The notes under the pieces are model-generated. The model did no database searches, was not told the DNA's origin, and was given only the letters and a program-made list of their open reading frames with translations. The position numbers and the translations under genes were made by a program. Below are positions 1-28,210 of a DNA stretch of 37,358 nucleotides, piece after piece (position 1 is the first letter of the stretch; every line of letters begins with the position of its first letter). Origin of the DNA: a virus; IMG/VR virus record IMGVR_UViG_3300044729_002084, positions 1 to 37,358 of that record. One strand, 5' to 3'.

Positions 1-707
1 ATCATTTCATCATCAATTTCTAATTCTTCTTTTAGTCCTGCAATGAAGTTATAATCATCCATTGTCAGAACACCTTTGTCTCTGATATCAATAAGTCTTT
101 CTGTGATACGATGAAGTTCCATATCATCTTTAACATCTTCTCTTGCTAATTCTAACATACGAATCATTAGAGGAATGTTCAAGGTAATAACATCTTCTTT
201 ATCATTAACTTCATTGATGTATTGTTTGAATGATTTCATTGGTTCTCTTTCTTCTTTTACTGATCTCCAACCACCACCTTTAGACTTATACCACTTAGAT
301 GCCCAACCATTGGCATATGCGGAAGGATAAACATCAAACTTCGATCTTGCTAGTGATACTGCTCTGGACCAAAGTTTAGGATTTGTTGGTTTATTTTTTT
401 CGTTGAGTTCCATATCTTCGCTTAACTTTCCTTTGCCATAGCTTGACACATTGATAGGTGCACCTTTTCTTTCTGGATTAGGATCGTGTTTTCTTTTCGC
501 TCTAACCGCAGCAGCTCTTTCTTTTTTCGAAAGTTGTGCCCTCTTTTCTTTTGACATACATTTTGGTTTTGCTTCACCTGGTTCTCTTGCACAAGGGCCA
601 ACAACTTCACCTTTAGAATTAATTCTTTTCCAATCGCCTTTGGGGTGAGTTTTGCTGAACCACTGTCTCAAATCTTCATTCTGTAAGAAACCTTTTAGAG
701 TTTTCAT
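1..707 (-). CDS. Virion-module protein, C-terminus outside window
   Basis: The frame opens at the ATG at 707-705 and runs off the left edge, so at least 235 residues are seen. Residues 1-155 are basic and include a motif like YPSAYANGWASKWY, which resembles the DUF5872-type domain of marine T4-like phages (from memory). The N-terminus MKTLKGFLQNE resembles the T4 capsid-targeting peptide MKTYQEFIAE. A second such peptide, MKSFKQYINE, starts at an internal in-frame ATG at 239 (residue 157) and is followed by a helical acidic segment. The frame may therefore be a fusion of two packaged proteins, or two in-frame genes. The start overlaps the stop of the upstream gene (ATGA, 704-707), which implies translational coupling. 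Function unknown. Confidence 0.8.
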   Translation of the reverse strand, partial: MKTLKGFLQNEDLRQWFSKTHPKGDWKRINSKGEVVGPCAREPGEAKPKCMSKEKRAQLSKKERAAAVRAKRKHDPNPERKGAPINVSSYGKGKLSEDMELNEKNKPTNPKLWSRAVSLARSKFDVYPSAYANGWASKWYKSKGGGWRSVKEEREPMKSFKQYINEVNDKEDVITLNIPLMIRMLELAREDVKDDMELHRITERLIDIRDKGVLTMDDYNFIAGLKEELEIDDEM

Positions 708-1090
708 ATATTTCTTAATGTCTCTGCTATTTGTAAGTCAATCGAAATATCAGTTGTTATTATGTTTTTTCCTCTGATACCTCTAACCACTGAAGGCAAC
801 AGGTTGAGATACATCAAGAAAGTTTTCAAGACATCATAATCTTTTTCATCTATTCGGTAGAATAATATTCTTGTTGTAGCTTCTGCGCCGAACACATTAT
901 ACAATAATATAATGTGATTTAATATTAATCTTTCTTTCAATGTTTTTGTTACTTTATATCTACGAAAAAGTCTTTTTAAGTACTTTGTTCGTTTCAAATC
1001 TCCTTCAAACTCAGACATAATACAGTTAGGTTTCTCATAAGCCTTTACCGCATACATCATGAAATTTTCTTCATTCAAATCATCAAACAT
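704..1090 (-). CDS. Conserved T4-like phage hypothetical protein (128 aa)
   Basis: A compact, mostly helical protein of 128 residues with no signal peptide or membrane segment. The segment MMYAVKAYEKPNC and the basic run around residues 33-55 recall a small conserved family next to structural genes in marine T4-like phages (from memory; no function known). There is no good Shine-Dalgarno sequence directly before the ATG. A GGAGGAG lies in the loop of the hairpin at 1099-1122. The gene ends in an ATGA overlap with the next gene, so the two are probably translated together in the late module. Confidence 0.7.
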   Translation of the reverse strand: MFDDLNEENFMMYAVKAYEKPNCIMSEFEGDLKRTKYLKRLFRRYKVTKTLKERLILNHIILLYNVFGAEATTRILFYRIDEKDYDVLKTFLMYLNLLPSVVRGIRGKNIITTDISIDLQIAETLRNI

Positions 1091-1098
1091 GTATTGAA

Positions 1099-1122
1099 GT
1101 GGGGAAGATTTCTCCTCCCCAC
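1099..1122 (-). terminator. Hairpin after the Ig-like gene
   Basis: A 7-bp perfect stem (GTGGGGA/TCCCCAC) with a 10-nt loop sits 11 nt past the stop at 1133. On the minus strand it is followed by TTCAATAC and not a T-run, so it is a poor intrinsic terminator. It may instead mark an mRNA 3' end or control the next gene, because its loop contains GGAG. Confidence 0.4.
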
Positions 1123-1132
1123 ACTTTCAAAG

Positions 1133-1810
1133 TTAAGTTACTGTAATAGTGCTGTTTGACGATGTTGCTGAAACGCCTTGTACTGCGGCTGTTGCAGTGA
1201 CACGGAACTTGTAGCCATTGACAGTTGTATCTGCTGGCTTGACAAGCAGTGTTGTTGATGTTCCTCCAGTGTACTGAGTATTTGCTGGTGTTCCATTGAC
1301 AACGTTTGTCCATCCCAGTGAACCGGAAGGGTTGTTGACTTGCCACTGATATGTTAGAACTGCCGCTGTGTTTCCAACTAGTGTTGGTGTTACAACAAAT
1401 GATGCAGAGTTAGCATAGCTTGTATTAGCAACAACTGAAGCTGAAGTAGTTGTAGCCAATGTGATTGCTACGTTAGGTAGAAGCTGTGCATCACCATCGC
1501 TGATCATATTGGACAATGCAACTAGTGTTTCATATGTCACACGACCGGCACGACCACCCGAACCCGTTGTTTTAAGATTCCAACCAGTATGAGCACCAAC
1601 ATTATTTAATACTTCATCTTCATCTGGATCAACACCAAACAAACCAATAGTTTCTCCAGCAGTGTATACGTTAGCTGTCGTATTTGCATAAAGCAATGCT
1701 ACGTTAGCTGCTGTAGGTGCTGCTCTGTTTGGGTTTGCTGGTGCAATAGCTGAGTTTACTGCCCAGTAAGGTGCGTTTGCTGCGTTATCGTTATTACCCC
1801 ATGAGGACAT
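1133..1810 (-). CDS. Virion-type protein with C-terminal Ig-like domain
   Basis: A 225-residue protein rich in Ala, Thr, Val and Asn with almost no charge in its C-terminal half. Residues about 1-110 contain the segment GSGGRAGRVTYETL, seen from memory in small structural proteins of marine T4-like phages. Residues about 113-225 form one Ig-like beta-sandwich: LTYQWQV, then W, then YKFRVTATA as the Tyr-containing strand, ending in TITVT. Ig-like domains of this type decorate phage capsids and tails and bind surfaces weakly. The start is fixed by AAGGAG six bases before ATG. An AATAAATA late-type element lies about 30 nt upstream. A capsid decoration or tail role is inferred. Confidence 0.75.
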   Translation of the reverse strand: MSSWGNNDNAANAPYWAVNSAIAPANPNRAAPTAANVALLYANTTANVYTAGETIGLFGVDPDEDEVLNNVGAHTGWNLKTTGSGGRAGRVTYETLVALSNMISDGDAQLLPNVAITLATTTSASVVANTSYANSASFVVTPTLVGNTAAVLTYQWQVNNPSGSLGWTNVVNGTPANTQYTGGTSTTLLVKPADTTVNGYKFRVTATAAVQGVSATSSNSTITVT

Positions 1811-1837
1811 GTTTTTCTCCTTAAATATCCTATTTGT

Positions 1838-1849
1838 TATTTATTTATT
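1838..1849 (-). promoter_or_regulatory. Late-promoter-like AATAAATAAATA
   Basis: Two overlapping AATAAATA words (one mismatch to T4 TATAAATA) lie about 30 nt before the ATG of the Ig-like gene. In the word at 1842-1849 the internal TAA is the stop codon of the upstream gene, in the same register as the exact late promoters at 8421 and 19538. Confidence 0.4.
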
Positions 1850-2993
1850 GGCTTTTGTTATCGTCATCAGCGTCTTGGGCATCCTTATTTGGACGAAGTT
1901 TCATCCTAGGATCTAGCTCAACAATATCACGATTTTGTTTCGTTAGTGTTGTGCCTCCAGACAATACCGCAGCAGCATCAGACTCTTTTTTTACCTTACT
2001 TGCTTTATCATCAGACTTAGCAAACTTTGGTTGTTTTCCATAAGAGGAAGTATCTTTGTCGTCTTTTTCCCAATCGTAGGTATCTTCTTTTACGACACCT
2101 TTTCTTTTGTAGATTGATTTAATGATTCTTGCGGAACGAGACATTTCTTTTTTCTTTTCAGTAACTCTAGTCAATGTTCCTTTTGGATTATCATAGAGAA
2201 CAGACTCATTCATACCATCTTCATTATTGCTTTTCATATAATGTGCTACTGTGTCTAGATAATCTGACGCCAAAGTAATTTTCGATTGTACCCAAGCAGG
2301 AATCTGCATTTTAGGATCTTTGATTGCAGAACGCAAATCAGAAATTGCATCTTCTATAATGTCGAGTTGAGTTAGCACCATGCTTCCTTCATCATCAAGC
2401 TGTCTACCCATAGCGATAGCAACATGATCTTCTTTGACACTATATTTCTTTTTTATTTCTGATTGTTTTGCCATTCTTTCTTTATCATCCTCAATGTCAT
2501 ATGACTTACCTAGTTCTTTATAGTAATCAGGATGTGGTAATCCAGATTTCTTGCGTAGTTCTTGCTGACGGCTGTGTAACATATTTTGCACAGAAGCTTC
2601 ATCTAATTCGACTTCTTCTTTAGTAGTTGGCTTTTTACCAACAAGTCTTTGATGAGCAGCAGCAATACCTTTCATTCTTTTACCCATACCAGGTCTAGGC
2701 ATTCCTTCAATAGGATCTACTGTTTTGCTAAGATAGCTTTTTACAGTTTTCATGCTTACTTCATCAACCTGTTCAACTTCTTCTCGATTGACACGATTCA
2801 TTGCCCACTGTCTAAATGCTAAAGATTTCGAGTGAGCAATCTTCATATCTTTTGGCATATGTGCTGGGTTATAACCTCTTGCCATAAGATAAGCATCTAG
2901 TGTAGCACTAGCTTCTTCGATCCCGGCCTTTGTAGACCAGGGATCCCATGGGTTTTTACCAAAAGCTTCTTTGAAGGTTCTCTTATTCTTCAT
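1845..2993 (-). CDS. Lys/Glu-rich virion-associated protein (382 aa)
   Basis: A hydrophilic, highly charged protein with no membrane segment. It contains repeated acidic words (EEVEQVDE near residue 75, EEVELDE near 128) separating short basic helical modules. ELDE contains L-x-E, the recognition pattern of T4-type prohead protease gp21, so processing inside the prohead is plausible. The first 60 residues (NPWDPWSTKAGIEEA) look folded and the C-terminal 90 are disordered. It overlaps the upstream gene by 11 nt and shares its composition, so the two probably work together. Scaffold, core or internal head protein is an inference; no catalytic motif is visible. Confidence 0.7.
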   Translation of the reverse strand: MKNKRTFKEAFGKNPWDPWSTKAGIEEASATLDAYLMARGYNPAHMPKDMKIAHSKSLAFRQWAMNRVNREEVEQVDEVSMKTVKSYLSKTVDPIEGMPRPGMGKRMKGIAAAHQRLVGKKPTTKEEVELDEASVQNMLHSRQQELRKKSGLPHPDYYKELGKSYDIEDDKERMAKQSEIKKKYSVKEDHVAIAMGRQLDDEGSMVLTQLDIIEDAISDLRSAIKDPKMQIPAWVQSKITLASDYLDTVAHYMKSNNEDGMNESVLYDNPKGTLTRVTEKKKEMSRSARIIKSIYKRKGVVKEDTYDWEKDDKDTSSYGKQPKFAKSDDKASKVKKESDAAAVLSGGTTLTKQNRDIVELDPRMKLRPNKDAQDADDDNKSQ

Positions 2994-4167
2994 CTTTTTT
3001 CTCTGAAGTCATACCAGCTTTACCAAGCATTTCTTTTTTCATTGTTAAGAAAGATTTTAGTTTTCTTTCTTTCTTTTCGGTTCCTTCATCAAGTTCAACT
3101 TCTTCTTTCATTTTACTACCGTATTTTGCCGTAGCAATTGCTCTTGCAGCCTCACGTTCAGCACGACCTTTTCGAACTGCATCATCCGCTTTATTCATAG
3201 CAGCACCTATTTTTTTCGCAACTTCATCTCTATCATAAGGAGCTTTTTTCTTAGCTGCTTCATCAAGTTCTTCTTCCTTCAAAGCATCTTTCTTCACCAT
3301 CTTCTTGACTAGCTTTTTATCTTCTGCTTCGTCCTCATGTCCTTCATCTTCTTTCTCATTTTCTTTTTCTTCGTCCATTGGACCGCCTTTGAATTTCACC
3401 TTTGAGCTTCTGCCGTCTGCACCAGGACCAACATCATCTTTTCTGTTGGTTGGCTTATTTGCTCCAGTTAAAGCATCTTTTGTGCGAACATTAGGATCAA
3501 TTTCTTCTTCTACTTCAACTTCTTCGTTGTGAGTTTCTTTCATTGCTTGTTTTGTTGCAGTAGCATACATTACATCTTTCCAACGAGAACCGTAACGCTT
3601 CTTAAGACCTGCTGTGTCTTTTTTCATAGACATAACGATTTCTTCTTTTTTCTTTTTCTGAGCATCACTCATCTCTTTTTCGTCTAGAGGAAGTGCAGAC
3701 TTTTTACCATACATCGATTCGATCAGGTGTTCTGCAAATGCATATCCTTCTGTCATTTTCTTTTTCTTACTACGAAGGAGTTCAAAGTCATGTGCATCAA
3801 TTTTTCCATTTTTGTTAGCATCAATCTTATGTTGCTTACCTTTTAGTTCCTCTTGAACCTCATCTTCTTTGTATAGTTTGGTATCAGTGAAACGGGTTTT
3901 ACGAGCACCATATTTGGCTCTTTTTGCTGGTGTCTTTTCTCCTTCATCATCTTCTGGCTCATCAGCTTGCTTACCGCCACCATAGCGTGTACCTAGTTTG
4001 ATACCAGCGCCACCGCTAGGTTTTGGACCTGAAGCAGCAGCCATTCTTTTCTTAGCATCATCAACAGTTGGGAATGCCTCGTTTAGCTGTTCTTTAACTT
4101 CTTCTTTAGTGATGACTTTATTAACAGCATCAATTAGAGACTGCGACACTTTGTCTTTAGCGAACAT
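2983..4167 (-). CDS. Lys/Glu-rich protein with EF-hand-like loop (394 aa)
   Basis: Very charged, low-complexity protein made of basic helical stretches joined by acidic linkers (EVELDE, EEELDE, PLDEKE). Residues 116-127 (DANKNGKIDAHD) fit the 12-residue EF-hand calcium loop: D1, N3, N5, G6, I8, D9, D12. The N-terminal 30 residues form a helix ending in QLNEA, an L-x-E site of the kind cut by prohead protease. AGGAG seven bases before ATG fixes the start. Its 3' end overlaps the next gene. It resembles a family of abundant acidic/basic proteins of marine T4-like phages (from memory). Prohead core or internal protein is inferred. Confidence 0.7.
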   Translation of the reverse strand: MFAKDKVSQSLIDAVNKVITKEEVKEQLNEAFPTVDDAKKRMAAASGPKPSGGAGIKLGTRYGGGKQADEPEDDEGEKTPAKRAKYGARKTRFTDTKLYKEDEVQEELKGKQHKIDANKNGKIDAHDFELLRSKKKKMTEGYAFAEHLIESMYGKKSALPLDEKEMSDAQKKKKEEIVMSMKKDTAGLKKRYGSRWKDVMYATATKQAMKETHNEEVEVEEEIDPNVRTKDALTGANKPTNRKDDVGPGADGRSSKVKFKGGPMDEEKENEKEDEGHEDEAEDKKLVKKMVKKDALKEEELDEAAKKKAPYDRDEVAKKIGAAMNKADDAVRKGRAEREAARAIATAKYGSKMKEEVELDEGTEKKERKLKSFLTMKKEMLGKAGMTSEKKDEE

Positions 4168-4168
4168 G

Positions 4169-6037
4169 TTATTTCTCCTGTTTTTGTTTCTTGTTCTTTT
4201 TAATTAGCAGACCAACTGTTTTATCTTGATCCTTGTATGTTTGCATGGGTTCTTTGTTTGATGCTCCCATTAGAACACCACCAACTCCCATATCTACAGC
4301 ACCAGGATCGTCTATTGCTTCTTTTTGAGTTCTGAACTTGTTGAAACTTTTGCGAAGTCCTGCTGCGGTACCTTCCTTCATATATTTATCATGCGAAGGT
4401 TCTACATCCTCACGATAGGTCACATCTCCTAGACCAGACATAGGATATACAGTTCCTTGTTGTCTAGTGTCATATTCAGGTCCTATTCCTGCCACATTTC
4501 TCAGTCTTTGATTCTGTGTTGGGGAATCGACCAATCCTTTTTTCTTTACTTTTTCTTTGTCTTTGCTGAAGTTGCTTTCCTTGGGCGGCGGGCTGGCTTT
4601 GAGGGTGGGTCCTCTTCCTTCAACGTAGGTTCTGAAGATGTAACTGGAGTTACTGGCAACGTCTCCGTCTCTAACATCGTCTTGTCTTCCTGCTTTTCTG
4701 GTAATTTGGCAGCTTGGACAGTTGTTGTCAAAGAGGAGGCTTCCGTGTTTTCCACAACCTTTTGCTCTGATGTTGGCTTTTTGAATAGATTTAGAATCCA
4801 TTGAATCATTTTGTTGCTCCTTAAAAAGTAAAGAAACCTTCTCGTTAATATTTAATTTTTTATTTCTCATCAACCAATCAGTAGAGATTTCATTTAAACT
4901 ATCTTTATCTAAAAATTCGTTGATGTGATCGTAAACATCACTAATAGATTCCTCAACAACCTCTAAGTTATCATTGTTTTCAAATAGATTAAAATCATTG
5001 AACATATTGTAAAACTTAACTTTATTCTCTTGAGCTTTTACCCACTTTTCTTCACGAACTGATTCTGAGATCATTCTTTTCAGTCCAAGGTTTCTTTGAC
5101 GGCTAACTTCATTCAGAGTATCAACATATACCATCATTGTGGTATATCCAAGTTCTTCTAATTCTTCTTTGATTGTTGCTATGTTATCAAAGTTATCTGC
5201 TGTACCATTAATAATCAATGGAGAACGATTTCTAATAGCCTCTCTACGAAAATCTTTACTTTGCTCTGATAGTTTCTTTTTATCCATCAGATACTCAAAT
5301 GCTTGTATTGTGCTTAGTTCTACTGCTTTTTGTTCAGCAACACCTTCACGAATAACAATGTCTTTTCCTGAACCAGGTCCGCCAGTAATGAAGATTGCTT
5401 TGAACATTCCTCTACTTACATTTTCATTTAGACCCATTCCTTTGCGAACATCATGAAATAATTCTTTAGCGTGTTTATCATTCTTCTGCATATGAGAAGA
5501 TAGATTGCTCTTGAACGATTTGTAATCATTATTCTGTGCATGATTACGCATATCTGTTCCAGATACACCTTTCGTTCTTTCACCAGATGATGATACAGTT
5601 ATCTTTTTGAAGTTGAATGAACCATGCTTAAATGGTCTGCCAGCTTCATCATGAGTCTTTCCATTATAGTGATTGAGCAATCTTTTATATTCATCAACTC
5701 TATCTGCACCAGCAATAACATGAAGATGGGTGTAGCCTTTAGCATGTGCATCCGATGCATGATGCATAATGGTAGGCTTCTCTTTGCTTGATGTGATGAT
5801 ATTTGTACCAGGAAATGCTCTTTTTAAATGCTTCAGTTTGGTATCTGGTGATAAAGGATTCTTCTTTGCATCCTGCGAATGAGATGCAATCACTAGATGA
5901 TCTGATTTTTCTTTTTCTGCTGTTTGTTTTAGACCTTCAACATTCTCCTCATGACCTTTAGTGGGAGGATTCATACGACCAAACAACATCGTAAGTTTTT
6001 TCTGGTTTTCTTCTAGTAGTTGTGAAAATCTTTTCAT
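4169..6037 (-). CDS. Nucleotidyltransferase-P-loop kinase two-domain protein
   Basis: A 622-residue protein with three parts. Residues 15-205 are a cytidylyltransferase/NMNAT-like fold: GRMNPPTKGH (20-29, a TxGH version of the HxGH motif) and VSGTDMR (158-164, like the ISSTxxR motif). Residues 210-375 are a P-loop kinase of zeta-toxin/adenylate-kinase type, with Walker A GGPGSGKD at 219-226. Residues 376-622 are a disordered tail with a Cys cluster (CGKH, then CPSC, 428-443). The N-terminus MKRFSQLLEE matches the T4 capsid-targeting decapeptide, so the enzyme may be packaged and injected. Substrate unknown; an NAD- or nucleotide-related reaction is the family expectation. Codons 410-497 also contain a second gene in the +1 frame (4546-4809). 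Confidence 0.8.
   Translation of the reverse strand: MKRFSQLLEENQKKLTMLFGRMNPPTKGHEENVEGLKQTAEKEKSDHLVIASHSQDAKKNPLSPDTKLKHLKRAFPGTNIITSSKEKPTIMHHASDAHAKGYTHLHVIAGADRVDEYKRLLNHYNGKTHDEAGRPFKHGSFNFKKITVSSSGERTKGVSGTDMRNHAQNNDYKSFKSNLSSHMQKNDKHAKELFHDVRKGMGLNENVSRGMFKAIFITGGPGSGKDIVIREGVAEQKAVELSTIQAFEYLMDKKKLSEQSKDFRREAIRNRSPLIINGTADNFDNIATIKEELEELGYTTMMVYVDTLNEVSRQRNLGLKRMISESVREEKWVKAQENKVKFYNMFNDFNLFENNDNLEVVEESISDVYDHINEFLDKDSLNEISTDWLMRNKKLNINEKVSLLFKEQQNDSMDSKSIQKANIRAKGCGKHGSLLFDNNCPSCQITRKAGRQDDVRDGDVASNSSYIFRTYVEGRGPTLKASPPPKESNFSKDKEKVKKKGLVDSPTQNQRLRNVAGIGPEYDTRQQGTVYPMSGLGDVTYREDVEPSHDKYMKEGTAAGLRKSFNKFRTQKEAIDDPGAVDMGVGGVLMGASNKEPMQTYKDQDKTVGLLIKKNKKQKQEK
4546..4809 (-). CDS. Small basic-tailed protein nested in +1 frame of the NTase-kinase gene
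   Basis: An 87-residue frame lies wholly inside the 622-codon gene, shifted +1. It is preceded by AAGGAG with 7 nt to ATG, better than the host gene's own Shine-Dalgarno. The product starts MIQWILNLFKKP (amphipathic helix), continues as an acidic Thr/Pro/Glu-rich linker, and ends in PARRPRKATSAKTKKK, a nucleic-acid-binding type of tail. The local GC content is higher than in the flanks, as expected of dual coding. It is not a typical Rz1-like spanin, because no lipobox or signal peptide is seen. Function unknown; a small packaged DNA-binding protein is one guess. Confidence 0.6.
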   Translation of the reverse strand: MIQWILNLFKKPTSEQKVVENTEASSLTTTVQAAKLPEKQEDKTMLETETLPVTPVTSSEPTLKEEDPPSKPARRPRKATSAKTKKK

Positions 6038-6044
6038 TCTTTTT

Positions 6045-6650
6045 TTAATCTCCAGCGGTTTTACCAGAACCTTTAATTGAACTTAATGGATCACTTTGCG
6101 AACTGAATTTTACAGCGAGACCACCAAAAGCTTTTCCTTTGTGTTTAAAAGTTATAGTTGTTCCGCTATGATGGACCTCTATATGATGTGGATTGTTATA
6201 TATGTGAGCATGATGGGCACTCGGAACAATTGAATGATGACTATTGCTCCCATCTGATTTTGTATATGTTGTATGTCTAATGTGGTTATGTCCTTTTTTT
6301 TGCATTGGTGTTTCATGAGAATGCAAAATATTTTTTATATGATCAGCAAGTTCGTGTTTTGGAAGATTAGACAAATGTTCATGATATGTTTTTGCAATTT
6401 TGTGTAAAACTTCAGTATTCTTTTTTTTAACATGTTCCTTCATTGCAGGATTAGCTTTCATCATTTCTTTTCGTGTGTTTCTATTAGTAGCATGTTTTAG
6501 TTCAGGAAATTTTCTCAAAATGTGCTTACGGTGTGCTTCTAAGTGTTCTTTCGCACCATGAAAAGTCTTTTCTCCTGGATTAGAAACGGGAATATGTTTG
6601 TTAGATGAGTCTGTTACTTTCAGGCTGATTCCGTGATGAACTTCTTGCAT
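6045..6650 (-). CDS. His/Lys-rich protein; probable 3' half of a split PD-(D/E)XK-like gene
   Basis: A 201-residue protein unusually rich in His and Lys. Its opening MQEVHHGISLKVTD looks like the (E/Q/S)xK strand of a PD-(D/E)XK nuclease fold. The matching Asp strand (SSDIVVT) is at the very end of the preceding ORF. The two ORFs are separated by one base. Removing one A from the A7 tract at 6661-6667 joins them into a single frame with no stop. Independent translation is possible, because AAGG lies 8 nt before the ATG. The C-terminal half (GTTITFKHKGKAFGGLAVKF) is a beta-rich segment. Confidence 0.6.
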   Translation of the reverse strand: MQEVHHGISLKVTDSSNKHIPVSNPGEKTFHGAKEHLEAHRKHILRKFPELKHATNRNTRKEMMKANPAMKEHVKKKNTEVLHKIAKTYHEHLSNLPKHELADHIKNILHSHETPMQKKGHNHIRHTTYTKSDGSNSHHSIVPSAHHAHIYNNPHHIEVHHSGTTITFKHKGKAFGGLAVKFSSQSDPLSSIKGSGKTAGD

Positions 6651-6651
6651 T

Positions 6652-7203
6652 TTATTTACCTTTTTTTCTTGTTGTGACCACGATGTCAGAAGAATCTTGT
6701 TGCTGTGATGATTTTATTCCCGTTGAACGCTGTATATCACCAGGTTTTGAAGTCCAATGCACATCATGTATTTTATGTCCTCCAACTTCAACTTGTTTTC
6801 TAATATCTTCAGCCGCACTCTTTGCTCTTGCGTTAATTTTTTTGTAGTCTGTTGGATGTACAGTTTTCTTTAATTTATCATGAGCTTGTTTTGGTGAGTC
6901 GCCTTCTTTGTCTGGATGTTTAGACATATGCGAACCGCCTTTTAGATGATACCCTACAAGAAGTTCATGTAGTTTTCCTTTTGTGTCGGAAGAAACTTTT
7001 CCTTGTATTGGACCAGCATCTTCTTTTATATGTTCTTTTTTTTCATCTTCATCATCATTTTCATCGTCGCCTTCATGCCAACCTTTTTCTTTTTCCAAGT
7101 TGGACAAAATATTTTGAATTTCATCATCAGATATTTTTTCTTTTGGACTTTCTTCCAAAAGACCTGCTCTTTCTAACCAAATTTTTTTCTGTATCGATAA
7201 CAT
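6652..7203 (-). CDS. Probable 5' half of split PD-(D/E)XK-like virion-module protein
   Basis: 183 residues. The N-terminus IWLERAGLLEESP is followed by an acidic linker (residues 30-60). A globular part then starts at about 72 (GKLHELLVGYHLKGG) and ends SSDIVVTTRKKGK. HELL...(D)...DIVV is the first half of a nuclease-type fold whose Lys strand (GISLK) is encoded in the next ORF. From memory, homologues in aquatic phages are single proteins in which DhIVTTKxGEKHxVSLK is continuous, which supports a frameshift here. It sits 1 nt behind the ligase-like gene. A sequencing error in the A7 tract cannot be excluded. Confidence 0.6.
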   Translation of the reverse strand: MLSIQKKIWLERAGLLEESPKEKISDDEIQNILSNLEKEKGWHEGDDENDDEDEKKEHIKEDAGPIQGKVSSDTKGKLHELLVGYHLKGGSHMSKHPDKEGDSPKQAHDKLKKTVHPTDYKKINARAKSAAEDIRKQVEVGGHKIHDVHWTSKPGDIQRSTGIKSSQQQDSSDIVVTTRKKGK

Positions 7204-7204
7204 T

Positions 7205-8380
7205 TTATTTCTGCCTCGCTAAACGATTTAATCTATTGAACTCGTTTCTGTCGTTTAATTTTGACACTTGTCCTTCATGATTAACAACGAATCCTTCAGG
7301 TTTAACTGATTGTCCTTTTATTTCATGATCTAAGCCACCAGTATGTTGTGCTAACGTGTGAACAAGAACATCTTTTGCTTTTTGTAAATGCTGATGTACT
7401 TGTAAAACATTTTGTAGATTCTGTTTGTGTACATTGGTATGTTGAATTAAACCATTAAGCTGATCTTGATATTTCTTTTTACCAGCATCAGTTTTTTTCT
7501 TATCTATCTCTTTTGTTAATTTATTTTCAATATGTTTTTGTAGACCCGCAACTGTTGGTTTTTCTTGAGTGTCTACAGTTGAATTGATATAAGTTTTCAT
7601 ATGATCTCTAACGGGATCAATAGAATGATACATATGAGGATTTTTGTCATGTAATTTTTGTGCAGCAGCTACATGCTTTGCATATTCAGTATGATTAGTT
7701 TTAGTCATCACAACTTTTGATGTATCGTGTCCGGGTAGTCTGTGATAAACATCAGGATGATCCGCAAAGTGACTTAAATCTGGACTATAGTTGGCTGTCA
7801 TAGCTTTTGCTGTAGGACCAACATATTCAGTATGATTGTAGATACCAAATTTAGCTTTAGCTATCTTCTTGCCTTCTTCTGAGTTTTTATTTGCAGAATA
7901 TTTGATAACATTTGGGGTGAAGCTATATTTGTCACCTTCTTTTTTCTTATCTTTGTCAGAGAATAGAACATCTCCTTGAAACACGCCTTGCTTGGGTGTT
8001 ATTTTTGGTAGATGCGTCAATGCTGATTTTAGTTTCTCAACAAGACCTGGTGCATGACCATGATTCTGCTGAATGTCTTTTTCTGTATAATTAATCTTTG
8101 GGTTTTTGTTGAATGCTGACTTTGATGCAACAAAGAACTTGCCAGTCTCTGGATGATGTCCATAAACAATAGACGGTGAGCCATCATGCTTCATGGTGAG
8201 AGAAGAATCGTGGGCACCGGAAATGATATGATTGTGAACTTGGTCTAATGCGCCGACAGCATGTTCGAAGCCTTTGGCTCCGTCATTGATAGGATGGTCC
8301 TCTAGGTGCTCAATGTGCTTGAGCTTTTCGCCTTCTGGTTCTGTAGTTTCTTCTTTTAAAAATGTCTTGAATTTTAGCAT
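7205..8380 (-). CDS. Nucleic-acid ligase-fold nucleotidyltransferase (DUF6267-like)
   Basis: With the start at 8380 the protein has 391 residues. KHDG at 64-67 fits motif I of the covalent nucleotidyltransferases (Lys64 as the AMP/GMP acceptor). FGIYNHTEYVG resembles motif III/IIIa, EGFVV at 362-366 resembles motif IV, and SKLND with Lys374 motif V. This is the fold of ATP-dependent ligases and capping enzymes, and is close to DUF6267 of aquatic T4-like phages (from memory). GAGG five bases upstream selects ATG 8380 over the TTG at 8398, giving the N-terminus MLKFKTFLKE, which matches the T4 capsid-targeting peptide. It is the first gene behind the late promoter at 8421. The substrate (RNA, DNA or protein) cannot be told. 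Confidence 0.7.
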   Translation of the reverse strand: MLKFKTFLKEETTEPEGEKLKHIEHLEDHPINDGAKGFEHAVGALDQVHNHIISGAHDSSLTMKHDGSPSIVYGHHPETGKFFVASKSAFNKNPKINYTEKDIQQNHGHAPGLVEKLKSALTHLPKITPKQGVFQGDVLFSDKDKKKEGDKYSFTPNVIKYSANKNSEEGKKIAKAKFGIYNHTEYVGPTAKAMTANYSPDLSHFADHPDVYHRLPGHDTSKVVMTKTNHTEYAKHVAAAQKLHDKNPHMYHSIDPVRDHMKTYINSTVDTQEKPTVAGLQKHIENKLTKEIDKKKTDAGKKKYQDQLNGLIQHTNVHKQNLQNVLQVHQHLQKAKDVLVHTLAQHTGGLDHEIKGQSVKPEGFVVNHEGQVSKLNDRNEFNRLNRLARQK

Positions 8381-8420: not shown

Positions 8421-8428
8421 TATTTATA
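8421..8428 (-). promoter_or_regulatory. T4-type late promoter TATAAATA
   Basis: An exact TATAAATA on the minus strand, 41 nt before the ligase-like start. Its bases 3-5 (TAA) are the stop codon of the SDR gene upstream. It separates the glycan operon from the virion module and should be read by the phage late sigma factor (gp55-like). Confidence 0.7.
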
Positions 8429-9233
8429 TGATTAGTTCGTCTATAATATCATAAATCGTATAGTTCTGTACATAGCCTAATTGTTTAATCTTGGTAATAT
8501 CTAAGACCATATTGGTAGTCTGTACGACTTTGTGGAATTCAGCAGTTGCAACATTTTCCACGTTAGATGATGACGATAGTTTTTGTGCAGCATAGGTAAT
8601 AGCATCAACTAAACGAATAGGAATACCATTTCCTATGTTATAGATTTCGTTGATTTTTCCTTTTTGTAGGACTAGATTGATGGCACGAATTGCATCGGTG
8701 ACATAAATGTAGTCTCTGTAGGCTTCACCACCATCATATAGCTGAACTGTGTTTCCGGCTTGTAGTTCCTGTATCATGTACTGCAATGCATTCTTCTTTT
8801 TTGATACCTTTTTATCAGATGCACCCACGACATTTGCCAGTCTCAAAATTCTATATTTAATATTAAACGTTTCACAATATGAAATGAGTAACTGCTCTGC
8901 TGCTCGTTTGGTGATGCTGTAAAAGCCTTTAGGGTCGCAGTAGGCAGTCTCTTTAGCTGGCAAATCAACATTTCCGTATACAAACCAAGAACTTACAAAG
9001 TTAAATGTAACGTCTTTTCCTTTGCAAGTTTCTAGCGTCTTAATAAGTGTCGTTAGATTTGTATCGATGTCAATATAAGGGTCTGTCCAAACATTATAGT
9101 TGTCTACTGTTGAAATGAAGTAAAGAACCTCGTCAGACTTCACTTCATAGTCATTTCTCTCATTAACAATTACATTAGGAGTGAGTCTTGCATACTCACC
9201 ACCAACAAATCCAGCACCTAGAACATTTACCAT
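8424..9233 (-). CDS. Extended SDR sugar-nucleotide epimerase/reductase
   Basis: 269 residues when started at ATG 9233, which overlaps the stop of the dehydrase gene (ATGGTAA) and lies 10 nt from AAGGAG. Longer frames back to 9290 or 9242 are less likely. GAGFVGG at residues 5-11 is the NAD(P)-binding glycine motif. YSITK is the YxxxK catalytic pair and FVSSWFVYG supplies the Ser. The RDYIYVTDA and YNIGNG segments are typical of NDP-sugar epimerases/reductases. Last gene of the glycan operon, directly after a 3-dehydrase, so reduction or epimerisation of a keto-dideoxy sugar is a reasonable but unproven role. Confidence 0.85.
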   Translation of the reverse strand: MVNVLGAGFVGGEYARLTPNVIVNERNDYEVKSDEVLYFISTVDNYNVWTDPYIDIDTNLTTLIKTLETCKGKDVTFNFVSSWFVYGNVDLPAKETAYCDPKGFYSITKRAAEQLLISYCETFNIKYRILRLANVVGASDKKVSKKKNALQYMIQELQAGNTVQLYDGGEAYRDYIYVTDAIRAINLVLQKGKINEIYNIGNGIPIRLVDAITYAAQKLSSSSNVENVATAEFHKVVQTTNMVLDITKIKQLGYVQNYTIYDIIDELII

Positions 9234-10507
9234 TGTTGACATACTCCTTCGATATAATTCAAAACCTTTTCGTTGTATAAAGGAGAACATCCAATGAAGA
9301 ATACATTACTCAATGCTAGATTTGAGTTTGGATAATCTTTGTAATTATCTAAATGTTTATATCCGGGATGCAGTAAAATATTACCACTGAAATAGTTTCT
9401 AGTTTGAATTTTATTGTTTTCAAAGTGAGATACCATAAATTCTTTCATTTCTTGCGATTCGCAATAGATAGGTACCCCAAACCATGAAGGATCAGAACCT
9501 GGTGTTGCATTGATTACTCTTGCACCAGAAATATTATCTTCAATGAACGTCTGAATCTTTTCTTTGTATTCTCGGCGTTTGCTTTCAAGCATATCAAACT
9601 TTTTCAACTGCTCTAGTCCGATTGCACCTTGCAAGTCTAGAGGTTTTAGATTGTAACCAATATTAGTAAACAAATATTTGTGATCAATGACGCCATCATA
9701 ATCATCCAACCAGTTATCAAATCTTTTTCCACAAGTACCACATTCAAGTAGATTGTTTGCTCCTACACAGTAACAATCTCTACCCCACCAAGAAATGCTT
9801 CTTGCTTCTTTGATGAATGTTTCACTATTTGAACACACCATACCACCTTCACCCGTACTAATGTGATGTGCGGGATAGAACGATGTTGTCCATGCATCAT
9901 AATAGTCTGTAATCAGTTTGCCATTCCAAAGAGAACCCAAAGAATCACAATTATCACCTAATAGAGTTAGACCATATTTGTTACACAAAGCAACAATGAA
10001 ATCCATGTCTGGAGGATTACCCAAAACAGGAGAAACAAAAATAGCTCTTGTCTTTGACGTAATCTTTTCTTCTATTTTTAATACATCAAAGTTTAATGTG
10101 TCAAGTTCAATGTCAATGAAAATAGGTTTCATTCCATTTTGAATGATTGGTGCTATTGTAGTTGGAAATCCTACAGGAGATACAATGATTTCATCTCCAT
10201 CTTTCCAGTTATTATATTTTTTCGCAGCAGTTACCATCACAAGATTGGCTGAACTACCAGAGTTCACCATGTGGGAGTATTTGACATTGAATCGTTTGCT
10301 GAATGCATCTTGAAATTCAGACACTTTTTCACCAGAAACTATCCAAGAACCATTTAGCAATGTATCAATAGCTACTCTGATTTCATTATGATCCCAAAGT
10401 TGTCCAGAGTATTGCACAAATTGGCCCTCTTGATAATTATCGTAATTTTTCACATATTTTGGCTGCACTGATTTTGATAGTGCTTCAATCATTTCATTTG
10501 GTGTCAT
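9227..10507 (-). CDS. rfbH: RfbH/E1-type NDP-4-keto-6-deoxyhexose 3-dehydrase (PMP, iron-sulfur)
   Basis: 426 residues of the DegT/StrS aminotransferase fold, in which the PLP lysine is replaced by His: SFYPAHHISTGEGG, with His214 at the Lys position. This is the hallmark of the CDP-4-keto-6-deoxyglucose 3-dehydrase E1 (RfbH/DdhC). Four Cys (187, 245, 247, 256) give C-X57-C-X1-C-X8-C, nearly the published [2Fe-2S] motif C-X57-C-X1-C-X7-C of E1. The enzyme removes the C3 hydroxyl with PMP and electrons from a reductase. No reductase (E3) gene is seen in the window, so the host must supply one. It overlaps rmlB by 4 nt; GGAG 7 nt upstream fixes the start. The product would be a 3,6-dideoxyhexose precursor. 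Confidence 0.88.
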   Translation of the reverse strand: MTPNEMIEALSKSVQPKYVKNYDNYQEGQFVQYSGQLWDHNEIRVAIDTLLNGSWIVSGEKVSEFQDAFSKRFNVKYSHMVNSGSSANLVMVTAAKKYNNWKDGDEIIVSPVGFPTTIAPIIQNGMKPIFIDIELDTLNFDVLKIEEKITSKTRAIFVSPVLGNPPDMDFIVALCNKYGLTLLGDNCDSLGSLWNGKLITDYYDAWTTSFYPAHHISTGEGGMVCSNSETFIKEARSISWWGRDCYCVGANNLLECGTCGKRFDNWLDDYDGVIDHKYLFTNIGYNLKPLDLQGAIGLEQLKKFDMLESKRREYKEKIQTFIEDNISGARVINATPGSDPSWFGVPIYCESQEMKEFMVSHFENNKIQTRNYFSGNILLHPGYKHLDNYKDYPNSNLALSNVFFIGCSPLYNEKVLNYIEGVCQQW

Positions 10508-11451
10508 TTAGTTTCTCCGTACCATGGTAGTGTTTTTTGTATGCCTTGTTCTAACGTATAATTTGGTTTATATCCAAGTTCTTTTGTTATCTTGTCGCAA
10601 TTGATAGAGTATCTTCTGTCATGACCTGGTCTATCTGTCACATATTCTATCAGACTTTCGGGTTTATTCATAACATTTAGAATCATTTTTACCAGTTCTA
10701 TATTGGATACTTCTGTACCTCCACCAATATTATATTTTTCTCCAATTTTTCCTTTTTCACGAACTAAATTAATTCCATTGCAATGATCATGAACAAATAG
10801 CCAATCTCTGACATTTAACCCGTCACCATACACAGGAATTTTATGATTCTTTCTTGCTTTACTGATGATTGTTGGTATAAACTTTTCTTTATGCTGACCT
10901 GGACCATAATTGTTTGAGCAGTTCGTTATAATTGCCGGTACTCCATATGTTTTATGAAATGCTCTAACAAAATGATCACTTGCAGCTTTTGATGCTGAGT
11001 ATGGATTGTTTGGTTGATATTGTGTCAGTTCATGAAAGCTTTCATCTGAATCTAACTCTAAACTACCATAAACTTCATCAGTGGAAACATGAATAAACTT
11101 TTCTAAAGAATCTAAATTCATAGAGTGCTTTAGAAGATTAAGTGTTCCTAAAATGTTTGTATCAACAAAAGGAGTGTAATCGTTAATTGAATTATCAACA
11201 TGAGACTCTGCTGCAAAATTTATGATATGCTTTGGTTTATATTTGTCAAAGATTCTTTTAATATATTCTTCGTCTTTGATATCAGCAGGCTCAAAAGAAA
11301 TTCTTTCATTATCTACAAGAGGTTTAATGTAATCATAGTTTGATGCATACGTCAATTTGTCAACACAAACTATTTCATCATCTATTTTCCAAACTGTATT
11401 CCATAAATAATTGCCACCAATAAATCCTGCACCACCAGTTACTAAAATCAT
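10504..11451 (-). CDS. rmlB: dTDP-glucose 4,6-dehydratase (RmlB)
   Basis: 315 residues, usual length for the family. GGAGFIGGNY at 6-15 binds NAD. STDEVYG holds the Thr-Asp-Glu triad of RmlB, and PYSASKAASD the Tyr-x-x-x-Lys pair. CDP-glucose dehydratases lack the DEVYG motif, so dTDP-glucose is the likely substrate. It converts NDP-glucose to NDP-4-keto-6-deoxyglucose, the substrate class of the next enzyme in the operon. Starts and stops overlap the neighbours by 4 nt on both sides. GGAG 7 nt before ATG supports the start. No RmlA-type nucleotidyltransferase is seen. Confidence 0.92.
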   Translation of the reverse strand: MILVTGGAGFIGGNYLWNTVWKIDDEIVCVDKLTYASNYDYIKPLVDNERISFEPADIKDEEYIKRIFDKYKPKHIINFAAESHVDNSINDYTPFVDTNILGTLNLLKHSMNLDSLEKFIHVSTDEVYGSLELDSDESFHELTQYQPNNPYSASKAASDHFVRAFHKTYGVPAIITNCSNNYGPGQHKEKFIPTIISKARKNHKIPVYGDGLNVRDWLFVHDHCNGINLVREKGKIGEKYNIGGGTEVSNIELVKMILNVMNKPESLIEYVTDRPGHDRRYSINCDKITKELGYKPNYTLEQGIQKTLPWYGETK

Positions 11452-12119
11452 AACTCAACTCCATAATGTTTTGCTATACCATGTTTACCATGAAATCCTA
11501 GACTTTTACCTAGCCATGGTGAACTCATATTATGTTCTATACTAAATTTGTCTACAATATCACCTTCAGCAAATTTAATATTATACTTTTCTTCAAGTTC
11601 TTTTCTATGTATCTTGCAGATAATATTATCTTCAGGAATTACTTTATCACCATATGCATCAAACACATAGTTGTCTGGATTATCTATTACTTCTCGTGAA
11701 TAATCTGATGTTTTATACTTAACCTCTAGATTCAATAAAGCATCGTATAGTTTTCTACTTCTCAAACAGAATCCACCATTACCCACCATACCATTGTTCC
11801 ATCTAGCTCCAATATAATCATAATTTAAGAATGCTTCATCCCATGCATTTTGATTTACGGCAAAACCATCAGCATGAATTATTATGTTGTATGGTTCAGT
11901 AACAACATGAGGCACTAATTTTAAAGTTATAAAATTGTATTCGTCAGTATATCTTTTAAACTTTTCTATTTTAATCCAAGTTACAGGAAACTCATGTGAG
12001 ATTAGATTAGCATCACTAAACCAATATACTCTGCTTATAGGAATACATTTAATTGTGCTTCGTATTGCACGAATCGTTGGTTCGTAGTTTAAAGCATCAA
12101 TGCAGGTTAAACTAATCAT
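11448..12119 (-). CDS. DUF5672-type putative glycosyltransferase
   Basis: 223 residues. IIIHADGFAVN (about 76-86) and the segment IGARWNNGMVGNGGFCLRSR (about 102-121) resemble the DUF5672 family found in glycan gene clusters. HADG would be the metal/nucleotide site and VGNGGFCLRS the acceptor-binding loop as in GT-A enzymes. No membrane segment. It overlaps both neighbours by 4-8 nt and lacks a clear Shine-Dalgarno, so it is translated by coupling. Donor and acceptor unknown. Confidence 0.72.
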   Translation of the reverse strand: MISLTCIDALNYEPTIRAIRSTIKCIPISRVYWFSDANLISHEFPVTWIKIEKFKRYTDEYNFITLKLVPHVVTEPYNIIIHADGFAVNQNAWDEAFLNYDYIGARWNNGMVGNGGFCLRSRKLYDALLNLEVKYKTSDYSREVIDNPDNYVFDAYGDKVIPEDNIICKIHRKELEEKYNIKFAEGDIVDKFSIEHNMSSPWLGKSLGFHGKHGIAKHYGVEL

Positions 12120-12753
12120 ATGGATAAGGGTCTACACTAGTTCCTCCTGCATGTGCATATTGAAGAACATCATGGCCAAAGAAATTTCTGTATATATCTA
12201 ATATATGTACCTGATCTAAAAGACCTTTCTCGTTAACAGAATCAAACCAAACGTATTCTAAATCTTTTTCGCAACGATACAATTCATCCATCGACAATGT
12301 TTGATTGAAGAACTCGATTTCAGAGAAATACATTTGAGTTCCTAGAGTGATATCATTTCCCCACTTTGCTGTGACTGCTTTTTTAACAGTCTCTTTACAT
12401 TTTTGTATAATGTCATGATAATCTAAATCTGGTTTGTTATCATAGGCCATCTTCAGCAAATATTTGAATTCTTTAGGAATCAAATTGACTGCATTTCTCA
12501 TCAAAGTCAATTCTGCAACACCATGATTTGTTGTTCTTTGTGGTACACCATCAAATGAGAATCTATTATCTTTATCATAGATAAACACATCACAATAATC
12601 TTGTGTTTCAGCATCTATGGGTGAGTGAGTTGTGAGAATAACATAATGACCTTTTTCAGACAACATTTTGCAAAGTGTCTTGGTCATCTTTCTTTTTTCT
12701 TCTTGATGATTGCCTCCACAATAAGAGGTAACTATGATTGCTGTATCACTCAT
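12112..12753 (-). CDS. Putative glycosyltransferase-like protein
   Basis: 213 residues, opening with an alternating hydrophobic strand (TAIIVTSYCGG) like the first beta strand of a GT-A Rossmann-type fold. ILTTHSPID and DVFIYDKDN would be the next strands and LLKMAYDNKPD could hold the D-x-D-like acidic site. No family is recognised with certainty; the operon context suggests a glycan enzyme. Coupled to both neighbours by overlaps. Confidence 0.55.
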   Translation of the reverse strand: MSDTAIIVTSYCGGNHQEEKRKMTKTLCKMLSEKGHYVILTTHSPIDAETQDYCDVFIYDKDNRFSFDGVPQRTTNHGVAELTLMRNAVNLIPKEFKYLLKMAYDNKPDLDYHDIIQKCKETVKKAVTAKWGNDITLGTQMYFSEIEFFNQTLSMDELYRCEKDLEYVWFDSVNEKGLLDQVHILDIYRNFFGHDVLQYAHAGGTSVDPYPYD

Positions 12754-13457
12754 GCTGTTCTGTATATAAAAGTTTCTTGCATATCATCTCTATATGCTTC
12801 AGAAGGTAAATACCAACGATTTGTTTCACCAGGATGCATATCATATGCATTTGGATTACCACTACCGTGCCAGCATTCAAGGTCAAAACGATGATGCGGT
12901 TGATCTTCAAATTGTGGTTTGAACATGTTCTCTGGTGGAGTCTTTAATCTGCGGCACTTTCTAAGATACGATGCTTTTGCCCAATAAAAGTTACCCGCAT
13001 AGAAAGGATGAGGTGGGTTATTTAAAAATGCTGCACCACACATATCATAACCTTCGTCTAATTTAGCAACACATTCTTTCCATTTCTCAATGTTCCAGTA
13101 TTGCATATACTTTCGCCAGTTTTGATGACCTCCTGGTCCGTGACTAGCTCCTTTATGTGTTATAAAACACACATAGAATTCTTCATCATTAAGATGACAG
13201 TATTCTTGTAAATAGTTTACTGAAGTTGCTTCATACCATGGTTGAAAAGATTGATCATAATGTAATATATCAATATTCTTTCTATCTTTCCACCTTTCTT
13301 CTAACCAAGAATAATTTTCTTTGTCGTAGTGTGCAAAGAAATAACCATGCTCTATTTCATCAAGTAGACCAGTTTTTTCTAGCAGTTCTGTTTGTTCTAT
13401 TGTGATATCTTTACCGCAGCCAATATCTATCATATGGCTGAACAATTTAATTTTCAT
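12750..13457 (-). CDS. Putative glycosyltransferase with THKGA and NPPHPFYAGNFYW motifs
   Basis: 235 residues from ATG 13457, which has GGAG 7 nt upstream; an earlier in-frame ATG at 13481 lies inside the upstream gene. The FITHKGAS...NWRKYMQYW segment followed by NPPHPFYAGNFYWAKASYL resembles, from memory, sugar-transferase-like proteins of bacterial capsule clusters that contain a HTKG motif and an SGNFWWAK loop. Many Trp, His and Tyr suit a carbohydrate binder. No membrane segment. Donor and acceptor unknown. Confidence 0.65.
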   Translation of the reverse strand: MKIKLFSHMIDIGCGKDITIEQTELLEKTGLLDEIEHGYFFAHYDKENYSWLEERWKDRKNIDILHYDQSFQPWYEATSVNYLQEYCHLNDEEFYVCFITHKGASHGPGGHQNWRKYMQYWNIEKWKECVAKLDEGYDMCGAAFLNNPPHPFYAGNFYWAKASYLRKCRRLKTPPENMFKPQFEDQPHHRFDLECWHGSGNPNAYDMHPGETNRWYLPSEAYRDDMQETFIYRTA

Positions 13458-13458
13458 T

Positions 13459-14163
13459 TTAACTCCAAGTTGCTTGTTCAAAGTTATGCCAGTAATGAAT
13501 GACTCTTCCTTTTCCTAATGTAGAATAGAAAGGAGTTGTATGAATAAGGCCATGACCAGAATAGAAGTATAATATTTCACCTGGTCCGCTTTCTAACGCA
13601 CCAACAAAATGACTAGTTCCTGTATCACCACCAAAGAATATTTCACTTGTCATTATGTGATTTAAGTTTTCTAGAAAATCTGTAGATTCTTCCCACCCAT
13701 CAATATGACCTATCGTTGTTTCTGTACAAATAATTTTTCTATAATCTGAATATGCTTCACTTTTAAATCTCTCAAGCATTTTTTCAAAAATATGTTTCGG
13801 CCAATTTCTATATGTGTTGTATTGAGCATTAAACAAAGGACAGATAACTATCTTTTTTTCTGCTGTTTTGTTGTTTGGAATTTTTACTAAATCACCAGAC
13901 AATCCTCTGAAATCCCAGAGATTAATATTCTTCCATGATAACTCTTTTTCACCACGAACATCAGAAAAATAATTTGTGTTGTCTAACATAAATCTCAAAA
14001 ATTTCTGACAATAATCTGCTGGTGATACTGAGTCAGGTAACAGATGGAACTTTATGTTAGTATCTTCTACTTTTCTAAGATACTCAACGACATTTGCTAC
14101 GGCAACAATATCTCCATTTCTTAGAGGACCACCAAACGCACCGAGAGGAACATTAATTATCAT
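13459..14163 (-). CDS. GT9-like (heptosyltransferase-type) glycosyltransferase
   Basis: 234 residues. FFGGDTGTSHFVGAL near residue 178 is the nucleotide-binding loop of the heptosyltransferase/ADP-heptose family (D-T-G-x-x-H). IVICPLFNAQYNTYRNWPKHIFEKM is its typical strand-helix before the C-terminal domain. It is shorter than bacterial members (about 320-350 aa), so the N-terminal domain is reduced. Its 3' end is 2 nt from the next start. Confidence 0.68.
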   Translation of the reverse strand: MIINVPLGAFGGPLRNGDIVAVANVVEYLRKVEDTNIKFHLLPDSVSPADYCQKFLRFMLDNTNYFSDVRGEKELSWKNINLWDFRGLSGDLVKIPNNKTAEKKIVICPLFNAQYNTYRNWPKHIFEKMLERFKSEAYSDYRKIICTETTIGHIDGWEESTDFLENLNHIMTSEIFFGGDTGTSHFVGALESGPGEILYFYSGHGLIHTTPFYSTLGKGRVIHYWHNFEQATWS

Positions 14164-19537: not shown

Positions 19538-19545
19538 TATTTATA
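19538..19545 (-). promoter_or_regulatory. T4-type late promoter TATAAATA
   Basis: Exact TATAAATA on the minus strand, 30 nt before the nuclease-like start. Bases 3-5 (TAA) are the stop codon of the helicase gene, the same arrangement as at 8421-8428. Marks the switch from the replication operon to late genes. Confidence 0.7.
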
Positions 19546-27715: not shown

Positions 27716-27789
27716 TGGTTGCGGGCCCAAGAGTCGAACAAGGAACTGAGGATTATGAGTCCTCTGTGATACCATTTCACCAACCCGCC
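27716..27789 (-). tRNA. tRNA with anticodon CAT (Met-type), degenerate
   Basis: Anticodon loop CTCATAA on a perfect GAGGA/TCCTC stem, CCA encoded. Position 1:72 is a G-A mismatch, as initiator tRNAs lack a 1:72 pair, but the T stem has two T-T mismatches. It may be an initiator-like, Ile2-type or decaying tRNA. Last gene of the array. Confidence 0.7.
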
Positions 27790-27799
27790 ATTTATTTAG

Positions 27800-27884
27800 T
27801 GGTGCGAGTAGACGGACTTGAACCGTCACGCCTTGCGGCGGCAGATTTTAAGTCTGCTGTGTATACCGATTTCACCATACTCGC
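27800..27884 (-). tRNA. tRNA-Leu (TAA)
   Basis: Acceptor GCGAGTA/TACTCGC, loop CTTAAAA, long class II variable arm, encoded CCA. Confidence 0.95.
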
Positions 27885-27886
27885 AT

Positions 27887-27969
27887 TGGTGCCCCAAGAG
27901 AGACTCGAACTCTCACGCCGAAGCACTGGCTTCTAAGACCAGCGTGTCTACCAATTCCACCATCGGGGC
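27887..27969 (-). tRNA. tRNA-Leu (TAG)
   Basis: Acceptor GCCCCGA pairs with the 3' strand, loop CTTAGAA, long variable arm, encoded CCA. 2 nt from the next tRNA. Confidence 0.95.
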
Positions 27970-27981
27970 ATAAATATTTTC

Positions 27982-28209: not shown

Positions 28210-28210
28210 T

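What the first reader, a model, noticed from the sequence alone, without database searches (positions are those of the whole stretch)
1..8380. Shared capsid-targeting-like decapeptide on several enzymes of the late module
Four start sites encode a similar N-terminal ten-mer: MKSFKQYINE (239), MKRFSQLLEE (6037), MLKFKTFLKE (8380), and the looser MKTLKGFLQNE (707). T4 internal head proteins begin MKTYQEFIAE, a signal that targets them to the prohead and is cut by gp21 after (I/L)-x-E. All three exact ten-mers here end (I/L)-x-E. The proteins behind them include a nucleotidyltransferase-kinase and a ligase-fold enzyme, so this phage may package and inject a set of enzymes. I am not aware of this being described for these families.
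Basis: partly seen in the sequence, partly recalled or inferred. Interest (0 to 1): 0.8.

Follow-up and report, generated by a model that had tools for sequence, protein, structure and literature searches.

The report
Capsid-loading tag on phage enzymes
Several enzymes of this T4-like aquatic phage start with the same ten-residue address label that phage T4 uses to load proteins into its head, so the phage probably packs these enzymes into its particle and injects them with its DNA; relatives of one of them have already been found in virus particles.

Summary
The decapeptides are real. Three of the four lie at genuine starts (8380, 6037, 707); the one at 239 is an internal Met, in frame inside the ORF that starts at 707. 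Residue classes sit at positions 4, 7, 8 and 10, the four that mutagenesis of the T4 IPIII capsid-targeting sequence (CTS) found to matter. In the window and six relatives this arrangement ranks first of 3,960 permuted ones (16 genes; mean 0.47). In DUF6267 these positions are the most conserved of residues 2-18, residues 1-19 are predicted disordered, and cyanophage homologues lack the extension. Relatives encode gp21, and their gp23 has an L-x-E site where T4 gp23 is cut. In the published S-CREM2 virion proteome, 4 of the 5 strictly tagged ORFs are virion proteins (SAM hydrolase, kinase, cytidylyltransferase, one small protein). Cytidylyltransferases are also reported in virions of S-SM1 and S-SZBM1. 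A CTS-like DNA pattern hit ORF starts in 80 of 84 matches across viral contigs, on SAM lyases, ADP-ribosyltransferase and internal head proteins. Best explanation: a T4-type CTS loading enzymes into the prohead. Packaging, cleavage and injection in this phage itself remain unshown.

The parts
8351..8380 (-). CTS-like tag MLKFKTFLKE on DUF6267 protein
   Evidence: Positions 4/7/8/10 have the lowest entropies (1.24/1.39/1.04/0.69 bits) among residues 2-18 of 60 distinct N-termini; E10 invariant in 47 sequences; residues 1-3 and 5-19 pLDDT<50
7205..8380 (-). DUF6267 protein, 391 aa; motifs KxDG (64-67) and EG (362-363) of covalent nucleotidyltransferase type
   Evidence: PF19782 E=1.3e-88; invariant K64 D66 G67 E362 G363
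8421..8428 (-). T4-type late promoter TATAAATA upstream of the DUF6267 start
   Evidence: all 4 minus-strand copies begin 17-48 nt upstream of gene starts, 6.1% of positions qualify
6008..6037 (-). CTS-like tag MKRFSQLLEE on nucleotidyltransferase-kinase
   Evidence: F4 invariant; positions 7 and 8 looser in relatives
4169..6037 (-). Cytidylyltransferase/NMNAT-like + P-loop kinase protein, 622 aa
   Evidence: phrog_3041 E=2e-49, Zeta_toxin PF06414; fold search: ATP sulfurylase, P-loop kinases, polynucleotide kinase; related cytidylyltransferases in cyanophage virions
675..707 (-). Looser tag MKTLKGFLQNE at start of the ORF leaving the window
   Evidence: relatives carry varied tag-like N-termini
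1..707 (-). Partial two-domain ORF (phrog_727 domain + second domain)
   Evidence: phrog_727 E=1.7e-17; phrog_727 is the commonest family among independently found tagged proteins, 10 of 80
210..239 (-). Internal tag MKSFKQYINE between the two domains; probable processing junction, not an established start
   Evidence: In frame with 707; junction P1=Glu in 30/32 relatives, P3 V/I/M/L/F in 28/32; standalone tagged versions L039, L069, L072; L083 keeps the motif with ATA in place of ATG

Best explanation
The decapeptide is a T4-type capsid-targeting sequence (CTS). In the late phase the tagged proteins, here the DUF6267 protein, the nucleotidyltransferase-kinase and probably the ORF707 protein, bind the prohead core through the hydrophobic residues at positions 4 and 7 (inferred from T4). 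The prohead protease gp21 then cuts after (L/I)-x-E at residue 10 (inferred), releasing the mature enzyme inside the head, and it is ejected with the DNA (inferred). Shown here: the tag, its position-specific conservation, its modular gain and loss, gp21 and its likely L-x-E specificity in relatives, and co-occurrence of the tag with virion localisation in a related phage. Not shown: packaging, cleavage or injection in this phage.
For: T4 mutagenesis: the first 10 residues suffice; 4 and 7 target, 8 and 10 process; gp21 motif L/I-X-E (PMC9026906). The same four positions are the most conserved of residues 2-18 in DUF6267, and E10 is as invariant as the KxDG lysine. Arrangement 4-7-8-10: 16 genes, rank 1 of 3,960, mean 0.47. 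Tagged non-homologous genes 3-4 per relative genome against about 0.2. Cyanophage DUF6267 lacks the extension. gp21 in 7/7 relatives; gp23 of the six relatives compared and of HTVC008M has L-x-E at the T4 gp23 cut site. S-CREM2: 4 of 5 strictly tagged ORFs detected in virions; non-structural virion proteins against the rest Fisher p=7e-4. S-SZBM1: tagged cytidylyltransferase MRFRQFIIEA listed in the virion, untagged DUF6267 neighbour not mentioned in the paper. Pattern scan: 80/84 matches begin ORFs of at least 50 aa, including internal head protein phrogs. T4 control recovers ipII and ipIII.
Against: No proteome of this phage. No published detection of DUF6267 in virions was found. Some cytidyltransferase relatives have T at 8 or K at 7. 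T4 IPI and Alt do not fit the strict regex, so it is neither necessary nor fully specific; a 2OG-Fe oxygenase matches probably by chance. HTVC008M has no strict hit and Syn9 one. The S-CREM2 authors warn of possible co-purification. The window holds no head genes, and G000 is only this fragment.
Confidence: 0.86

Rival explanations
1. The tag targets proteins to the prohead core for an assembly or scaffold role; they are not injected as enzymes.
For: In relatives a gene next to gp21 also starts MKSLKDFI. T4 IPIII affects head assembly (PMC9026906).
Against: Cargo includes SAM lyase, HAD phosphatase, nucleotidyltransferase-kinase and ADP-ribosyltransferase, which are host-directed activities rather than scaffolds.
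Confidence: 0.08
2. The decapeptide is an ordinary N-terminal helix inherited with each domain (folding or dimerisation), not a signal.
For: AF2 predicts a short helix at 4-13; homologues share it by descent.
Against: Same pattern on unrelated families; residues 1-19 low confidence and joined by a variable linker; absent from cyanophage DUF6267; E10 invariant.
Confidence: 0.03
3. Chance or compositional bias of phage N-termini.
For: Short motif; one window match (2OG-Fe oxygenase) probably is chance.
Against: 0/200 shuffles reach the strict-regex counts in the window and in all six relatives; rank 1 of 3,960 arrangements; 80/84 database matches at ORF starts.
Confidence: 0.01
4. Codon-level effect: an A-rich start raises translation of late genes.
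For: Tags often begin ATGAAA.
Against: DUF6267 tags begin ML or MI more often than MK; conservation is at residues 4, 7, 8 and 10, and the motif persists internally with ATA for ATG in L083.
Confidence: 0.02

Closest known systems
T4 internal proteins IPII/IPIII and their capsid-targeting sequence (MKTYQEFIAE)
   Same: N-terminal ten-mer; aromatic or Leu at 4 and 7, aliphatic at 8, Glu at 10; relatives encode gp21; several non-homologous cargoes per genome
   Different: Cargo here is large enzymes, not small basic proteins; the tag is more degenerate; one copy is internal to a fused protein; cleavage and injection untested
T4 Alt (virion ADP-ribosyltransferase, MELITELFDE)
   Same: Enzyme carried in the head with a gp21-cut N-terminal propeptide
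   Different: Different activity; Alt's propeptide does not fit the strict pattern
Virion-associated cytidylyltransferase/NMNAT of cyanophages (T4-GC190 in S-SM1; S-CREM2 ORF154; S-SZBM1_140)
   Same: Homologous nucleotidyltransferase domain; S-CREM2 and S-SZBM1 copies carry the tag (MKNFSSFLTE, MRFRQFIIE) and are reported in virions
   Different: Window protein adds a P-loop kinase domain; the papers read here did not report the targeting signal
phiKZ/SPN3US propeptides cut by gp21-like proteases
   Same: Head proteins cut after a short motif ending in Glu
   Different: Different motif and cargo; taken from a review (PMC9026906), not tested here

Membership tests
T4-type CTS-bearing internal protein | N-terminal ten-mer with hydrophobic 4 and 7 | tested here: met
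   8380 and 6037: F4/F7 and F4/L7; 707: L4/F7
T4-type CTS-bearing internal protein | (L/I)-x-E at 8-10 | tested here: met
   LKE and LEE in DUF6267 and the nucleotidyltransferase-kinase; at 707 it is FLQNE, one residue longer, so inexact
T4-type CTS-bearing internal protein | Phage encodes prohead protease gp21 | tested here: inconclusive
   Not in the 37-kb window; present in 7/7 relative genomes
T4-type CTS-bearing internal protein | Protein present in the virion | tested here: inconclusive
   Not measured here; tagged relatives present in S-CREM2 and S-SZBM1 virions by published MS
T4-type CTS-bearing internal protein | Cleaved after residue 10 by gp21 | not testable with these tools
   Needs N-terminal mass spectrometry
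T4-type CTS-bearing internal protein | Ejected into the host | not testable with these tools
   Needs infection assay
Covalent nucleotidyltransferase (ligase) superfamily, for DUF6267 | Motif I KxDG and downstream EG motif | tested here: met
   Invariant K64 D66 G67, E362 G363 in 47 sequences
Covalent nucleotidyltransferase (ligase) superfamily, for DUF6267 | Ligase fold | tested here: inconclusive
   AF2 pLDDT 90.5 but no significant PDB match; RNA editing ligase 1xdn only rank 9, E=2.2
NadR-like nucleotidyltransferase-kinase | HxGH-type nucleotidyltransferase plus P-loop kinase in one chain | tested here: met
   GRMNPPTKGH and GGPGSGKD conserved; fold matches to ATP sulfurylase and P-loop kinases. 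Substrate unknown

The most novel reading that the evidence does not exclude
T4-superfamily phages of aquatic bacteria use one short, interchangeable address tag to load a phage-specific 'injectome' of enzymes (SAM lyases, ADP-ribosyltransferases, nucleotidyltransferase-kinases, DUF6267 ligase-like enzymes, a Cas9-like nuclease), and internal copies of the tag make fused cargo into a polyprotein cut inside the head.
Probability: 0.45. Interest if true: 0.8.

Novelty: new member of a known kind. Interest (0 to 1): 0.7.

Why it matters
It offers a sequence rule that predicts which proteins marine and freshwater T4-like phages carry into the cell. That would explain why cytidylyltransferases, SAM hydrolases and kinases keep turning up in cyanophage virion proteomes, and it speaks to the doubt in those papers about contamination. 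It also points to a role for DUF6267 (late-made, packaged, next to a nucleotidyltransferase-kinase) and is testable by one mass-spectrometry run.

Tried and rejected
Site 239 as an independent start: rejected as stated, it lies in frame within ORF 707. Extra (L/I)-x-E sites in the KEEVELDEA-repeat proteins (1845-4167) as polyprotein sites: not enriched over shuffles (6 vs 3.9 and 4 vs 2.9). TATAAATA as a window-wide excess: not significant by number (5 vs 3.3); only its placement is. PDB sequence and fold search for DUF6267: no significant match. The whole genome of the window could not be obtained: G000 is the 37-kb fragment itself. Connected clusters of the 83 tagged proteins were over-linked, so I used family scans instead. 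A first DNA pattern had too few fixed bases. One search timed out and was rerun. The script stopped after its main output; the shuffle expectation for S-CREM2 was not obtained. Literature searches for DUF6267, for the CTS in cyanophages and for the T4 peptide returned nothing beyond PMC9026906.

Full report
Observation. The window is a 37,358-base viral record and the only sequence held for its genome. The four peptides are encoded where stated. MLKFKTFLKE (8380), MKRFSQLLEE (6037) and MKTLKGFLQNE (707) start ORFs. MKSFKQYINE (239) does not: the frame is open from 707 through 239 to the window edge, so it is an internal tag.

Chance. With a regex taken from the T4 internal proteins and the window tags, 3 window genes match against 0.08 expected from shuffled N-termini, and six relatives have 3-4 matches each against about 0.12-0.20; none of 200 shuffles reaches these counts. 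The window count includes a 2OG-Fe oxygenase that is probably chance. A stricter control permuted the residue classes over positions 2-12: the T4 arrangement 4-7-8-10 ranks first of 3,960 with 16 genes, mean 0.47, sd 0.78, among 1,064 distinct N-termini. Two of the 16 are the window's own tags, which suggested the pattern. As a positive control T4 gives ipII, ipIII and the 54-aa 61.1, but not IPI or Alt.

Why a targeting signal. In T4 IPIII the first ten residues suffice for head incorporation; residues 4 and 7 carry targeting, 8 and 10 processing, and gp21 cuts after L/I-X-E (PMC9026906). In 60 distinct DUF6267 N-termini the four lowest entropies of residues 2-18 are at exactly 4, 7, 8 and 10. 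Glu10 is invariant in 47 aligned sequences, like the KxDG lysine, although the residues that follow it vary. AlphaFold gives the domain high confidence and residues 1-3 and 5-19 below 50. The same domain lacks the extension in S-RIM44, S-PM2, S-SZBM1, Syn9 and HTVC008M but has one in Stenotrophomonas phage DLP6, MMKFTQFLAE. The extension is therefore modular.

Cargo. Tagged proteins of relatives are largely not homologous to each other: DUF6267, nucleotidyltransferase-kinase, a HAD phosphatase related to polynucleotide kinase, a SAM lyase, a DUF6321 protein, and a gene next to gp21. These proteins include SAM lyases, DUF5661, DUF6321, an ADP-ribosyltransferase, a GNAT, cytidyltransferases, and three PHROG families annotated as internal head or internal virion proteins.

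Head machinery. All seven relative genomes searched encode gp21 (PF03420). In the six compared, and in HTVC008M, gp23 carries L-x-E at the position of the T4 gp23 cleavage site, so the protease specificity is probably the same. The DUF6267 operon has TATAAATA just upstream; all four minus-strand copies in the window begin 17-48 nt upstream of gene starts, where 6.1% of positions qualify. Tagged genes more often have ATAAATA within 120 nt upstream (7/25 against 141/1,319, p=0.015).

Virion evidence from relatives. The published S-CREM2 virion proteome (PMC10665884) lists SAM hydrolase, APH-like kinase, cytidylyltransferase and ORF13. Their starts are MKDFDSFLEE, MKRFDAFLTE, MKNFSSFLTE and MKDLHSFLTE. 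Of 219 ORFs five fit the strict pattern and four of these were detected; for non-structural virion proteins against the rest p=7e-4. None of the 24 structural proteins fits. The Cas9-like ORF12 has LRFASFMAEA from residue 17. S-SZBM1 lists its tagged cytidylyltransferase, while its untagged DUF6267 neighbour is not mentioned in the paper. Cytidylyltransferase-type proteins are also reported in S-SM1 (PMC3037559), S-SCSM1 and S-CBWM1 virions (PMC9602691). The authors noted co-purification as a possibility; the tag argues against it.

Internal tag. The second domain of ORF707 is preceded by Glu in 30 of 32 relatives and by V/I/M/L/F at P3 in 28 of 32, whatever lies upstream. It stands alone with its own tag in L039, L069 and L072, and L083 keeps the internal motif with ATA instead of ATG. 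This looks like a conserved processing junction; cleavage is inferred.

Function of the cargo. DUF6267 has the KxDG and EG signatures of covalent nucleotidyltransferases, but a ligase fold could not be confirmed. Its viral structure matches include a longer S-PM2 protein named as cytidyltransferase-like, which suggests a natural fusion of the two enzymes. The second enzyme resembles nucleotidyltransferase plus P-loop kinase proteins. NAD synthesis or RNA end repair are plausible roles, and both are inference.

Limits. No proteomic or infection data exist here for this phage. Cytidyltransferase tags are looser in some relatives, and the regex is neither complete nor fully specific.

Noticed in passing
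window 1-707 (-); L039, L069, L072, L083: Second domain of ORF707 is nearly always preceded by a gp21-like junction (Glu at P1), standalone or fused; internal tag survives without a start codon in L083.
   Followed up: yes
window 8421-8428, 19538-19545, 34633-34640, 36527-36534 (-): All four minus-strand TATAAATA copies sit 17-48 nt upstream of gene starts; probable T4-type late promoters.
   Followed up: partly
L213 18966-19130 (T4 gene 61.1): The 54-aa T4 gene 61.1 product begins MKTFKEFIKE, a CTS-like start; candidate internal protein.
   Followed up: no
L214 7704-10313 (S-CREM2 ORF12): Virion-detected Cas9-like nuclease has a tag-like LRFASFMAEA from residue 17, after a non-matching start.
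   Followed up: partly
L164:137-634 (-), L207:1350-1844 (-): Gene next to gp21 begins MKSLKDFIAD or MKSLKDFIDE; in T4 an Asp at position 10 allows targeting but blocks cutting.
   Followed up: partly
L203:11153-11701 (+): SAM lyase with tag MKTYKEFVQE: a likely injected anti-restriction enzyme.
   Followed up: partly
window 1845-4167 (-): Two acidic low-complexity proteins with KEEVELDEA-type repeats; LxE sites not above chance; function unknown.
   Followed up: partly
window 29419-30012 (-): 2OG-Fe oxygenase starts MNLKNFIKE; matches the regex but most relatives do not; probably chance.
   Followed up: partly
window 27716-35251: 25 tRNA genes clustered on the minus strand.
   Followed up: no
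window 8424-18029 (-): Sugar/glycan gene cluster (epimerases, aminotransferase, glycosyltransferase-like ORFs) directly upstream of the tagged operon.
   Followed up: no
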